Assembly (NCBI RefSeq): GCF_040958695.1
Contig: NZ_CP162599.1
Span: forward strand, 2,018,001 to 2,082,000
Reading direction: 5' to 3'
DNA: 64,000 nt
Origin: Ornithinibacillus sp. 4-3
GTDB lineage: Bacteria > Bacillota > Bacilli > Bacillales > Amphibacillaceae
This document shows, one piece after another, positions 11,114 through 17,166 of this stretch (its first letter is position 1; each line of letters begins with the position of its first letter). The position numbers were made by a program, and so were the translations under genes. Below the pieces are notes generated by a model that saw nothing but the letters and a program-made list of their open reading frames with translations, had not been told where the DNA came from and made no database searches.

Positions 11114-11271
11114 ATTATTATATGTAATTTTATATTTGCATCTAGCTCCAAAATTGGTTTCGAAGTTTATTCAATGGTGCTTCCTTTGCTCGTCGTGTTG
11201 CAAGCTATTTCGATGATGTCGCACTCCTCGCATGCCTGCATATAGAAGAGGTTTCGATGAAGTGTACGGCA
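11114..11271. other. Insert-like spacer between tRNA-Phe and its truncated copy
   Basis: About 27 bp next to tRNA-Phe (CATTATTATATGTAATTTTATAT) match the flank of the truncated copy at 11297. The remaining 130 bp or so are richer in GC than typical spacers here and contain three TTTCGA(A/T)GA-like motifs. No open reading frame or RNA structure is obvious. It looks like foreign or repeat-derived DNA filling a broken tRNA duplication. Confidence 0.5.
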
Positions 11272-11297
11272 TGCTCTACCGATTGAGCTACCGAGCC
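11272..11297 (-). pseudogene. Truncated tRNA-Phe (acceptor and D arm only)
   Basis: The 26 nt match the first 26 nt of the intact tRNA-Phe with one change in the D loop (G to A). After the D stem the sequence diverges completely, so anticodon and T arms are missing. The upstream 27 bp also match the flank of the intact gene, showing a partial duplication. It should not give a functional tRNA. Confidence 0.8.
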
Positions 11298-11358
11298 ATT
11301 TATTATATGTAGATTTATATCTCAATTAATCTAAAAATTCTATGTAAAAATAAAAAAA

Positions 11359-11461: not shown

Positions 11462-11538
11462 TGGTGGACCCTGCAGGACTCGAACCTGCGACCAATCGGT
11501 TATGAGCCGATCGCTCTGACCAACTGAGCTAAGGGTCC
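11462..11538 (-). tRNA. tRNA-Ile2 (CAT, lysidine-modified type)
   Basis: A 77-nt tRNA with encoded CCA, A73, acceptor GGACCCT/AGGGTCC and anticodon CAT in GCTCATAAC. The acceptor and body resemble the tRNA-Ile(CAU) of Bacillus, read as isoleucine after TilS modification, and not the elongator Met tRNA beside it. The array order Met-Ile-Ser agrees with the B. subtilis trnB array. A methionine assignment remains possible. Confidence 0.8.
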
Positions 11539-11636
11539 CTTTACAAATAGGAAATCTTCCTTCCTATAAGTTTCGAATCCGCATCCCAGCTATTTACAAG
11601 CATGTAGCATCTATGCGAAAATTTAATTCAAAAAAA

Positions 11637-11713
11637 TGGTAGCGGCGGAGGGGATCGAACCCCCGACCTTACGGGTATGAACCGTACGCTCTCGCCAGCT
11701 GAGCTACACCGCC
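11637..11713 (-). tRNA. tRNA-Met (CAT, elongator), copy 1
   Basis: A 77-nt tRNA with encoded CCA, A73, acceptor starting GGCGGTG and anticodon CAT in GTTCATACC. The G1-U72 wobble pair and the body match the elongator methionine tRNA of Bacillus. It is identical to the copy 254 bp upstream. Confidence 0.93.
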
Positions 11714-11718
11714 AAAGG

Positions 11719-11792
11719 CTCCACAGGTAGGATTCGAACCTGCGACCAATCGGTTATGAGCCGATCGCTCTGACCAACTGAGCTAAGGGTCC
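11719..11792 (-). pseudogene. Chimeric tRNA: Ile2 5' body fused to the Asn 3' end
   Basis: The 5' acceptor strand, D arm, anticodon arm (CAT) and 5' T stem come from tRNA-Ile2. The 3' T strand and acceptor strand come from tRNA-Asn. Acceptor GGACCCT cannot pair with CTGTGGA, and the T stem has a C-A mismatch, so a normal cloverleaf is impossible. It is the expected by-product of the 254-bp duplication and almost certainly non-functional. Confidence 0.88.
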
Positions 11793-11890
11793 CTTTACAA
11801 ATAGGAAATCTTCCTTCCTATAAGTTTCGAATCCGCATCCCAGCTATTTACAAGCATGTAGCATCTATGCGAAAATTTAATTCAAAAAAA

Positions 11891-11967
11891 TGGTAGCGGC
11901 GGAGGGGATCGAACCCCCGACCTTACGGGTATGAACCGTACGCTCTCGCCAGCTGAGCTACACCGCC
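11891..11967 (-). tRNA. tRNA-Met (CAT, elongator), copy 2
   Basis: Identical in sequence to the tRNA-Met at 11637, offset by exactly 254 bp, with the same anticodon CAT and encoded CCA. It is probably the ancestral copy because it lies next to the intact tRNA-Asn. Confidence 0.93.
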
Positions 11968-11970
11968 AAA

Positions 11971-12044
11971 GGCTCCACAGGTAGGATTCGAACCTACGAC
12001 CGATCGGTTAACAGCCGATAGCTCTACCACTGAGCTACTGTGGA
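11971..12044 (-). tRNA. tRNA-Asn (GTT)
   Basis: First gene of the array: acceptor TCCACAG/CTGTGGA, G73, and anticodon GTT in CTGTTAACC. The 3' end continues CC then T, so the terminal A of CCA must be added after transcription. The T arm (GGTTCGAATCC) is the site where the duplication junction formed. Confidence 0.93.
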
Positions 12045-12089: not shown

Positions 12090-12118
12090 AATATAACATA
12101 GGGAATAATCTATGTCAA
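12090..12118 (-). promoter_or_regulatory. Sigma-A promoter of the tRNA array
   Basis: Consensus TTGACA (12113-12118), a 17-bp spacer and TATATT (12090-12095) on the minus strand, about 46 bp before the 5' end of tRNA-Asn. Confidence 0.85.
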
Positions 12119-14858: not shown

Positions 14859-16643
14859 CTATTTTAAAAAAACAAAGGACGAGGCTGTCCAATAAGCCCC
14901 CAAAATAAAACAAGAGGAAGAAAAATAAATCATTTTTCTCTTCTTGTTTTTCATTTGTAAAAAATTCCTGAAAAGTAGCCTGCGAAGCTCAGCTATTTTC
15001 AGGATATTGTGGGCTATTGCCACGATCCCGAATTCTGTGTGGACTTTATCGATACCCCGTAAAGAAAATCTACGGAACGACCGATTGCCCTTGATGTGAC
15101 CGAAAACACTTTCTACTTCCACTTTTCGTTGGGCGTAGATTGCTGCTTCCTCTTCACTTTCAAGGGCTGCTTTTGCCTTAGCTTTCATTTCTTCAAAGAT
15201 TGTATTCCAAAAAATTTGTCTGTTCCCCTTTGCCTTCGTACACTGGGGCTTCAATGGACAATCCAAACAACTTTCACATTCATAAATTTTATAACTCTGC
15301 ACATAACCAGACCTATTCTTCCGATTGAGATATTTTTTGAACACGACTCTTCGGTTATTTGGGCAGATATAATCATCCTCATGGGCACGATAGGTCCAAT
15401 TTTTAAAGTTTTTAATGTCTTTTTTGTACGCTCTTTTTTGTTCTTTGAGATAGGTGCCATAGGGTATTAAAAATTCAAAACGAGGGGATTTCTCTTCACC
15501 AATCGCATATAAATAATTTGCTTCACTTCCATAACCTGCATCGGCAATGATCCGTTGAGGCATCGGAAGGTTAGAAGCTGCCAACTTCTCCAAGTGTGGA
15601 ATAAAACACCGAGTATCATTTGGTCGTTGATGCACGGAGTAATCGACAATCAATTGATTTTCTGTGGCCATTTGTACATTATAGCCTGGCTTCAACTGTC
15701 CATTTCTCATATGATCTTCTTTCATCCGCATAAACGTGGCATCCGGATCTGTCTTGGAAAAGCTGTTTCGATCTCCTAAGATGGTTTGATAGGTCTGATA
15801 CTTTTCCATACGTGGAAGAAAGTTCTCACGTATTTGTTTCATTGGTTTTTTTAAGGTGCTACGACGAGAGCGGAGCTGTTTTCGAAGCTGACTTTCTTCC
15901 GTATTTTCGATAGCTTCAGAAAGGGCATCTACTTTTTCTGCTAGTTGATTGGCAATCGCTTCTAAGTCTTCCGCAGTCGCTTCTTCTTTAGAATGGCTTA
16001 TCTCTAGCTCTTCCTGTGCGGCAATCGTATCGATATGTGCCAACGTTTCCTGGATGCGTTGCTTTAACTGCGCCTCCCATCGCACGGTTGATTTTTTCCA
16101 TACGAAAGAATACTTATTGGCATTGGCTTCTATCTTTGTGCCATCCAAGAAGTAGTTTTCCATCGTAATCCATTGATCTTCTATCAGTTGCAGAATCATC
16201 GTTTCAAATAGCTGATCCATCATGGCTTTCATTCGCTTCCCACGAAACGCATTGATGGTGCGAAAATCAGGGGTTTGCATACCTGCAAGCCACATAGTTG
16301 GTAGATTTTCTTTGGTCATTTTTTCGATGTCTCTACAGGAATATATTTTTTGGCTGTAAGCATATAAAATAACTTTCAGCATCATTTTGGGATGAAAGGC
16401 TGGTCTACCTCCACCGCTATAATAACGATAGAGCTGTTCCTTTGGGATACGCTCCACCATTTCATCTACCACTCGTGCTACATGATGTGTAGGGATATAA
16501 TCTTGGATATCAAAAATCACCGTGCTTTGTCGGTTATCGTAAGGTTTAAATAAGGGAGTTGCTGGGTTAGAAGCTGTAACTTTTTCCTCGATTACCTCTA
16601 GAGGAAGTGTCGTTTGTGTGGTACAATTTGTATGAGATTTCAT
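14859..16643 (-). CDS. IS1182-family transposase
   Basis: DDE transposase of about 594 residues. A DUF772-like N-terminal region (GGGRPAFHPKMMLKVILYAY) is followed by a long charged helical insertion (about 215-300) and the catalytic core: LDGTKIEANANKY, IADAGYGSE and ESVFGHIKGNRSFRRF. A cysteine cluster (CESCLDCPLKPQC) precedes the last block. The ATG at 16643 has AAAGGG upstream; the open frame extends further up through the terminal repeat but without a start signal. The frame also runs through the other terminal repeat and stops in flanking host DNA at 14859. No frameshift is visible. Confidence 0.92.
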   Translation of the reverse strand: MKSHTNCTTQTTLPLEVIEEKVTASNPATPLFKPYDNRQSTVIFDIQDYIPTHHVARVVDEMVERIPKEQLYRYYSGGGRPAFHPKMMLKVILYAYSQKIYSCRDIEKMTKENLPTMWLAGMQTPDFRTINAFRGKRMKAMMDQLFETMILQLIEDQWITMENYFLDGTKIEANANKYSFVWKKSTVRWEAQLKQRIQETLAHIDTIAAQEELEISHSKEEATAEDLEAIANQLAEKVDALSEAIENTEESQLRKQLRSRRSTLKKPMKQIRENFLPRMEKYQTYQTILGDRNSFSKTDPDATFMRMKEDHMRNGQLKPGYNVQMATENQLIVDYSVHQRPNDTRCFIPHLEKLAASNLPMPQRIIADAGYGSEANYLYAIGEEKSPRFEFLIPYGTYLKEQKRAYKKDIKNFKNWTYRAHEDDYICPNNRRVVFKKYLNRKNRSGYVQSYKIYECESCLDCPLKPQCTKAKGNRQIFWNTIFEEMKAKAKAALESEEEAAIYAQRKVEVESVFGHIKGNRSFRRFSLRGIDKVHTEFGIVAIAHNILKIAELRRLLFRNFLQMKNKKRKMIYFSSSCFILGAYWTASSFVFLK

Positions 16644-16784
16644 AAAAAATCGCCCTTTCTGAAATGTTGTGTGGTAACTCCATTTTACAAGAAAAGGCGA
16701 TTTTTTTATATGTTTTTTAGGAAGAATAAAGAAAAAAAGGGCCGTCATAGAAAAGCAGTTTTCACTGACTTTTTGGACAGCCCC
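14881..16784 (-). mobile_element. IS1182-family insertion sequence, about 1.9 kb
   Basis: Terminal inverted repeats GAGGCTGTCCAATAAG (left, from 14881) and GGGGCTGTCCAAAAAG (right, read inward from 16784) bound the transposase. The element is flanked by GGAC on the left and GTCC on the right, a palindromic target rather than an obvious direct repeat. Taking the element out joins AAATGGAGGAC to GTCCTTTGTTTTTTT, which reads as the stem and U-run of a terminator for the upstream DUF4190-type gene. The outer 4 bp could instead be counted in the repeats. Confidence 0.88.
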
Positions 16785-16797
16785 GTCCTCCATTTCA

Positions 16798-17166
16798 CTA
16801 AAAAAGAAAAGGTCGTACAAAGAGAGCCAAAATAATTGAAATTGCTCCTACAACAATAGCTGTATTTCCTAGCCATACAGCATTACGATGTCGAGCAAAG
16901 AAGCCAACGATAATTCCTAGGGCTCCTAATATAATCGGTAAAAAGAAAAAAGATAAAACGGATAAAATTAACGCAATCCAACCTGAAAGATTTCTCATTT
17001 CAACGCGAAAATCTTCCATTTCATCTACATTTGATGCATCCCACTCTCTAGAAAATTCTTCATCATCTGAATTTCTTTCATCAAAAGATTTATGCTGGTC
17101 ATTGTAGCGATGATTATTTGTGTTTCTCTCCTGATTTCTTCTTGGATGATTGAAGTAATCCGCCAC
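16798..17166 (-). CDS. DUF4190-type small membrane protein
   Basis: A 122-residue protein. The first 60 residues are hydrophilic and rich in Asn, Arg, Asp and Glu (HPRRNQERNTNNHRY). The rest contains two transmembrane helices (about 63-88 and 98-120) with LGIIVGFFARHR between them, as in DUF4190 proteins of unknown function. It starts with GTG at 17166 after AAGGAGGG. An IS1182 element lies 14 bp past its stop codon, apparently in its terminator. Confidence 0.75.
   Translation of the reverse strand: MADYFNHPRRNQERNTNNHRYNDQHKSFDERNSDDEEFSREWDASNVDEMEDFRVEMRNLSGWIALILSVLSFFFLPIILGALGIIVGFFARHRNAVWLGNTAIVVGAISIILALFVRPFLF

What the first reader, a model, noticed from the sequence alone, without database searches (positions are those of the whole stretch)
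11481..11988. Exact 254-bp tandem duplication in the tRNA array creates a chimeric Ile2/Asn tRNA
The two units read as identical, and the junction lies in the shared T-arm string CGAACCT. The duplication gives a second intact tRNA-Met and a hybrid tRNA (11719-11792) with Ile2 acceptor GGACCCT facing Asn acceptor CTGTGGA, so the acceptor stem cannot form. This is a fresh unequal-exchange event between tRNA genes, because the copies have not diverged. Two elongator Met genes and transcription of a mispaired tRNA with a CAU anticodon could have effects on tRNA quality control. The alternative is an assembly error.
Basis: seen in the sequence. Interest (0 to 1): 0.7.

Follow-up and report, generated by a model that had tools for sequence, protein, structure and literature searches.

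The report
Duplicated tRNA segment with hybrid tRNA
A 254-letter piece of a bacterial tRNA gene row has been copied in place, giving an extra methionine tRNA gene and a broken hybrid of two other tRNA genes; this is an ordinary kind of event, but the same gene row also carries a small folded element whose relatives sit beside tRNA genes in many related bacteria.

Summary
Bases 11480-11741 are identical to the bases 254 positions further on (262 nt: a 254-bp unit plus the 8-nt TCGAACCT shared by the Asn and Ile2 genes). The hybrid (11719-11792, minus) has the Ile2 5' part and the Asn 3' end. Only 1 of 7 acceptor pairs can form, and it is the only one of 45 tRNA matches in the genome that does not cover the whole model. 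The one other held genome of the genus has the unduplicated order Asn-Met-Ile2-Ser-Phe. A pattern for the hybrid matches only this genome, among 159 of the family and 397 of the order. Best explanation: recent unequal exchange between two similar tRNA genes; the second Met is intact and the hybrid is a pseudogene. An assembly error is less likely but not excluded, as no reads were available. The kind of event is known, so interest is modest. In the same array, 11139-11297 is a copy of a structured element that I could not match to a known family. The element is in 64 of 159 family genomes; in the best-matching loci it mostly lies between a tRNA 5' piece and the intact tRNA.

The parts
11480..11733 (-). 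unit 1 of the 254-bp tandem duplication (most of Ile2, 98-nt spacer, Met, 3' end of hybrid)
   Evidence: offset-254 identity run 11480-11741
11734..11987 (-). unit 2 of the 254-bp tandem duplication
11719..11792 (-). hybrid tRNA pseudogene: Ile2 5' part (CAU anticodon) joined in the T loop to Asn 3' part; acceptor stem 1 of 7 pairs, T stem 4 of 5
   Evidence: sequence; Rfam tRNA match 8-63 only, 45.9 bits; fold without acceptor stem
11637..11713 (-). elongator tRNA-Met, copy 1 (name by recalled likeness to the B. subtilis gene)
11891..11967 (-). elongator tRNA-Met, copy 2, identical to copy 1
11462..11538 (-). intact tRNA-Ile2 (CAU; called Met by ARAGORN)
   Evidence: Ile2 identity inferred from recalled sequence likeness
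11971..12044 (-). intact tRNA-Asn (GUU), first gene of the array
11539..11636 (-). 98-nt spacer, second copy at 11793-11890; absent from the same-genus genome, whose spacer is 9 nt
   Evidence: fold z -2.54
12090..12118 (-). promoter-like TTGACA-17-TATATT before tRNA-Asn
   Evidence: 11 of 12 consensus matches; 6 such sites found against 3.9 expected, so not evidence of function
11139..11297 (-). second, separate feature: truncated tRNA-Phe 5' part plus structured element X (core 11187-11279) between Ser and Phe
   Evidence: 104 bits; the window copy is in the model's training set

Best explanation
A real and recent tandem duplication made by one unequal exchange between the T arms of two similar neighbouring tRNA genes, Asn and Ile2, on sister chromosomes. 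Shown: the exact repeat, the 8-nt shared junction and the single-copy array in the sister genome. Inferred: the array is transcribed from the promoter before Asn through the hybrid. RNase P frees the second Met normally, because its 5' side is still flanked by the Asn tail. The hybrid has no acceptor stem, so it is neither properly processed nor charged, and the piece between the two Met genes is degraded. The net effect is one more Met gene (three instead of two in the genome) and a neutral or nearly neutral pseudogene. The direct repeat should make the array prone to collapse back.
For: Exact 262-nt identity at offset 254. The hybrid is the only one of 45 genome-wide tRNA matches not covering the model from 1 to 71 (150 of 225 first-look candidates were scored). 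Folding: hybrid -25.4 kcal/mol with no acceptor stem, against -35.6 for Ile2. The same-genus genome has Asn-Met-Ile2-Ser-Phe with one Met and no hybrid. The wider order is Asn-Met-His-Ile2-Ser in 29 of 29 family loci and in 14 of the 21 named sodA loci that hold any tRNA. The hybrid pattern matches 1 of 159 family and 1 of 397 order genomes, the window's own both times; its two halves match the Ile2 gene in 49 and the Asn gene in 43 of 50 arrays. The locus is at about 2.03 Mb of a single 3.69-Mb contig, away from the contig ends. Tandem duplication of a tRNA block is also seen in another family genome: Glu-Val-Met-Asp-Thr-Lys twice in L207, with an exact run of 872 nt at offset 1,224.
Against: No reads, no coverage and no second strain of the species were available. 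Identical copies can also be kept so by exchange between them. The longest exact stretch shared by Ile2 and Asn is shorter here (9 nt) than in the other arrays read except L174 (13-30 nt), and those show no such duplication, so similarity alone does not explain why it happened here. No RNA data bear on the processing steps.
Confidence: 0.84

Rival explanations
1. Assembly error: the genome has one unit and the second was made by the assembler or by chimeric reads.
For: Exact copies with no difference; no other genome searched has the hybrid (1 of 159; 1 of 397); no reads to check.
Against: The join lies at homologous positions inside two similar tRNA genes, as recombination predicts. The place is far from the contig ends. 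Short exact tandem repeats are more often collapsed than invented by assemblers (general knowledge).
Confidence: 0.12
2. The duplication is real and was selected for a higher dose of elongator tRNA-Met, the hybrid being a tolerated by-product.
For: It adds a third Met gene. Duplication that raises tRNA dose under selection was seen in Pseudomonas fluorescens SBW25 (PMC7661048; abstract and passages read).
Against: No sign of Met shortage was looked for or found; the arrays of relatives do without it. The SBW25 duplications are 45-290 kb, with junctions outside tRNA genes in the table rows that I saw.
Confidence: 0.2
3. The hybrid RNA is stable and acts, for example as a decoy for tRNA enzymes or as a substrate for CCA-based quality control.
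For: D, anticodon and most of the T arm can form; the hybrid begins with GG as Ile2 does.
Against: No acceptor stem; too recent and too rare to show conservation.
Confidence: 0.04

Closest known systems
Tandem duplication that adds a tRNA gene, Pseudomonas fluorescens SBW25 (PMC7661048; abstract and passages read)
   Same: A tRNA gene gains a copy through an in-place tandem duplication.
   Different: There 45-290 kb, arising in laboratory evolution, with junctions outside tRNA genes in the rows I saw; here 254 bp, junction inside two tRNA genes, selection unknown.
tRNA gene fragments in prokaryotes (PMC9897764; passages read)
   Same: A partial tRNA sequence sits beside intact genes and can be mistaken for a gene.
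   Different: In the passages read, theirs come from element integration or a CRISPR spacer; this one is a join of two tRNA genes by exchange.
RtT repeats of the E. coli tyrT operon (recalled; one search gave a listing only, no text was read)
   Same: Tandem units of about 180 bp that contain a piece of the neighbouring tRNA, like the tandem X units of relatives (181-184 bp apart).
   Different: RtT repeats are recalled to carry the tRNA 3' end; X follows a tRNA 5' part.

Membership tests
functional tRNA (Rfam RF00005) | seven-pair acceptor stem | tested here: not met
   1 of 7 pairs by position; model match stops at 8-63; fold has none
functional tRNA (Rfam RF00005) | D, anticodon and T arms | tested here: met
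   D and anticodon arms intact; T stem 4 of 5 pairs
functional tRNA (Rfam RF00005) | processed, CCA-ended, charged | not testable with these tools
   no RNA data
tandem duplication by unequal exchange | two head-to-tail identical units | tested here: met
tandem duplication by unequal exchange | shared sequence at the two parental sites | tested here: met
   8-nt TCGAACCT inside wider Ile2/Asn similarity, 55 matches in 77 aligned columns
tandem duplication by unequal exchange | unduplicated order in relatives | tested here: met
   same-genus L174 and other arrays
tandem duplication by unequal exchange | two units in single DNA molecules | not testable with these tools
   needs reads or PCR
RtT-like tRNA repeat (for the neighbouring element X) | unit carries the tRNA 3' end (recalled) | tested here: not met
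   the tRNA piece before X is a 5' part, ending at tRNA nt 11-28 in 39 of 43 cases

The most novel reading that the evidence does not exclude
The tRNA array is a rearrangement hot spot, and the truly new thing in it is element X (window 11139-11297). X would be a family of about 130-nt structured, tRNA-gene-targeting elements that enter the D arm of many different tRNA genes and duplicate the tRNA's 5' part and upstream flank, so that the gene is restored. The duplicated pieces of tRNA in these arrays would then keep feeding unequal exchange. The link from X to the 254-bp duplication itself is not shown: the X model finds nothing in the duplicated spacer.
Probability: 0.45. Interest if true: 0.8.

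Novelty: new member of a known kind. Interest (0 to 1): 0.35.

Why it matters
The duplication is a clean snapshot of how a tRNA array gains a gene and a pseudogene in one step, with a single-copy sister genome to compare. It also warns that automated annotation can misname such arrays: ARAGORN calls Ile2 a Met and skips the hybrid, so Met genes can be miscounted. If element X is what it looks like, it matters more. It would be a small non-coding element that uses essential tRNA genes as a safe landing place and repairs them by long target duplication; which enzyme would do this is unknown to me and was not searched for.

Tried and rejected
The 98-nt spacer as a decayed tRNA-His, since His stands there in other genera: local score 8.0 against one His gene (L065), mean of 200 shuffles 7.9, rejected. 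The same spacer as a copy of element X: no match with model R1, filters off. The spacer as imported from elsewhere in the two genus genomes: no match better than E 0.169 outside the array. A chance repeat: rejected by the 262-nt exact run. A first permutation test of the X stem was uninformative, because the best-match rule scored shuffled stems nearly as high (6.52 observed, shuffled mean 6.37, maximum 6.54); I replaced it by pair counts on an alignment. X in plasmids (one 201-nt query from L217) and phages (one 56-nt query): no match. Literature: searches listed, in the titles and abstract starts that I saw, no paper on this duplication or on X. For X itself only (0 papers; 1 paper; 10 of 111 papers listed) were aimed at it, and the library lacks most subscription journals. 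on CCA quality control was seen as a listing only and supports no claim here. Dropped rows: 6 of 43 X candidates were left out of alignment A1 because the start was misplaced or the module differed (L200, L203:751, L208, L212, L221, L245). One search used 10 of the 12 loci first asked for; L090 and L093 were dropped for size.

Full report
WHAT WAS CHECKED. The window lies at 2,018,001-2,082,000 of a single contig of 3,694,176 bases. The best named matches to the adjacent superoxide dismutase protein reach 84% identity (Terrihalobacillus insolitus, Oceanobacillus sojae; records of the window's own genome may be left out there), so it belongs among Bacillaceae-like Bacillales. The array reads on the minus strand.

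THE DUPLICATION. Every base from 11480 to 11741 equals the base 254 further on, 262 nt in all. No other exact repeat of 40 nt or more, direct or inverted, exists in the window. The 8 nt in excess of 254 are TCGAACCT, the part of the T arm that Ile2 and Asn share at this place. On the minus strand the order is Asn, Met, hybrid, 98-nt spacer (which also stands before the hybrid), Met, Ile2, Ser, truncated Phe with element X, Phe: in full, Asn - Met - spacer - hybrid - Met - spacer - Ile2 - Ser - X - Phe.

THE HYBRID. 11719-11792 has the Ile2 sequence up to the T loop and the Asn sequence after it. By position only 1 of the 7 acceptor pairs can form. The Rfam tRNA model matches only positions 8-63 and marks the two sides of one broken T-stem pair. 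Of 45 tRNA matches in the whole genome, 44 cover positions 1-71 and this is the exception (150 of 225 first-look candidates scored). Predicted folds: -25.4 kcal/mol without an acceptor stem for the hybrid, -35.6 with it for Ile2.

RELATIVES. The only other genome held for the genus (L174) has Asn-Met-Ile2-Ser-Phe with spacers of 3, 9, 22 and 32 nt. In other genera the order is Asn-Met-His-Ile2-Ser, usually followed by Phe: 29 of 29 family loci brought in, and 14 of the 21 named sodA loci that hold any tRNA. Of the other seven, four Halobacillus loci begin at Met, two show one Met only, and Priestia abyssalis (L118) reads Asn-Met-Asn-Met-Ser. The remaining 59 of the 80 sodA loci had no tRNA in the stretch held. 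His is missing from this place in both genomes of the genus. A degenerate pattern for the hybrid matches 1 of 159 family genomes and 1 of 397 genomes drawn from the order, the window's own in both. The halves of the pattern match the Ile2 gene in 49 and the Asn gene in 43 of 50 arrays read, so the negative result means something, but it tests this hybrid only and not other tRNA hybrids. Against a simple similarity rule: Ile2 and Asn share at most 9 exact nt in a row in this genome and in L174, but 13-30 in the other arrays compared. Tandem growth of tRNA rows is seen elsewhere in the family: in L207 a block Glu-Val-Met-Asp-Thr-Lys appears twice, with an exact run of 872 nt at offset 1,224.

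HOW IT LIKELY AROSE AND WORKS. Shown: repeat, junction, sister state. Inferred: one unequal exchange between the similar Asn and Ile2 genes (55 matches in 77 aligned columns). The reciprocal product would lose the Met gene and the intact Asn and Ile2 genes at this place and would not be expected to last. A promoter-like site, TTGACA-17-TATATT, lies before Asn at 12118-12090; the scan found 6 such sites where shuffles give 3.9. No terminator-like site was found inside the array by the same scan, whose loop limit is 3-8 nt. Transcription therefore probably runs through the hybrid. The second Met keeps its natural upstream neighbour sequence, so its maturation should be normal. The genome then has three elongator Met genes: the two here and one at 72844-72918, identical over 74 nt but without an encoded CCA. 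Two identical 254-bp units side by side should recombine easily, so the state may be unstable (general knowledge).

ARTEFACT OR NOT. I had no reads. The join at homologous places in two tRNA genes and the position far from contig ends favour a real event.

A SECOND FEATURE IN THE SAME ARRAY. The Ser-Phe spacer (11114-11358) holds a copy of the 5' part of tRNA-Phe followed by about 130 nt of other sequence, element X. Blast of one X copy finds matches in 52 of 159 family genomes, and a covariance model (R1) in 64 of 159, with up to 26 matches in one genome, where 26 is the number of candidates scored. In 397 genomes drawn from the order a blast search finds 14, nine of them in three other families (few candidates per genome were scored). 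The window genome has one copy (104 bits) and the same-genus genome has none.

In 30 loci returned by the tool for the best matches (not a random sample; several hits share one tRNA piece) there are 47 core hits. Of these, 43 have a tRNA gene on the same strand within 400 nt downstream. In 39 of the 43 the best ungapped local match to that tRNA's 5' region lies before X and ends at tRNA nucleotide 11-28, in or just after the D arm. Of the other four, one had only 9 nt, and in three the best match lay just upstream of the tRNA. No shuffled control was run on these matches. The tRNAs are Phe, Lys, Thr, Asn, Met (initiator by recalled sequence) and Gly. Three loci (L216, L218, L222) have no tRNA gene in the stretch held. 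The clearest case, L220, has a perfect 44-nt repeat, 20 nt of upstream flank plus the first 24 nt of tRNA-Phe, on both sides of 136 nt. In L197, L203, L204 and L219 the unit of tRNA piece plus X is tandem, 181-184 bp apart.

X is structured. On 37 distinct copies (alignment A1; 6 of 43 candidates dropped; candidates were picked with motifs on both arms) RNAalifold finds two helices with double-sided changes at 6 of 11 pairs. Counts on a structure that I named from the alignment: 97.9% of 478 cells paired, 7 pairs and 24 cells changed on both sides, against 2.7 and 3.4 in shuffles (0 of 500 reach either); sliding the partners gives at most 38% paired and 6 such cells. One measure is weaker: 14 further pair types against 11.5, reached by 27 of 500 shuffles. 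Related copies inflate such counts. The second helix has the form TGC-GA-G-GA-GTG with CAC-GA-C-GA-GCA, where the GA/GA steps look like tandem sheared pairs (inference). Against a function as RNA: the window copy alone does not fold better than shuffles (z -0.26), and no transcript data were available. I read X as a small mobile or formerly mobile element with a long target duplication. How it moves is unknown. That it is undescribed rests only on Rfam showing no family at X at gathering threshold and on the narrow literature searches.

VERDICT. It is an ordinary type of rearrangement with an unusual, clean outcome. Its larger value was to lead to element X.

Noticed in passing
window 11139-11297 (minus), core 11187-11279; relatives in L197-L246: Element X: about 130 nt, structured with covariation, placed after a truncated tRNA-Phe 5' part. 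The family is in 64 of 159 family genomes. In 39 of 43 examined copies with a tRNA downstream, a 5' piece of that tRNA lies before X (Phe, Lys, Thr, Asn, Met, Gly). Looks like an element that targets the tRNA D arm with long target duplication.
   Followed up: partly
L216, L218 (around 1440-1550, minus) and L222: The second module of X also occurs where no tRNA gene is in the stretch held, in L216 and L218 joined to another repeat that contains CCCACGGAAAGCGACGAGC; several genomes have sets of copies with equal scores.
   Followed up: no
window 11539-11636 and 11793-11890: 98-nt spacer with no match elsewhere in the two genus genomes; it takes the place of tRNA-His of other genera and folds better than shuffles (z -2.54), but is neither His nor X by the tests made.
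   Followed up: partly
L207 (G083) 66-2316: A tRNA block Glu-Val-Met-Asp-Thr-Lys is present twice in tandem, exact over 872 nt at offset 1,224.
   Followed up: partly
L118 (Priestia abyssalis) 1469-1907: Array beside sodA reads Asn-Met-Asn-Met(CAU)-Ser, with a second Asn gene where His stands in other genera.
   Followed up: no
window 14859-16820 (minus): A long ORF of 653 aa that looks like a transposase of the IS1182 kind by recalled likeness; not searched.
   Followed up: no
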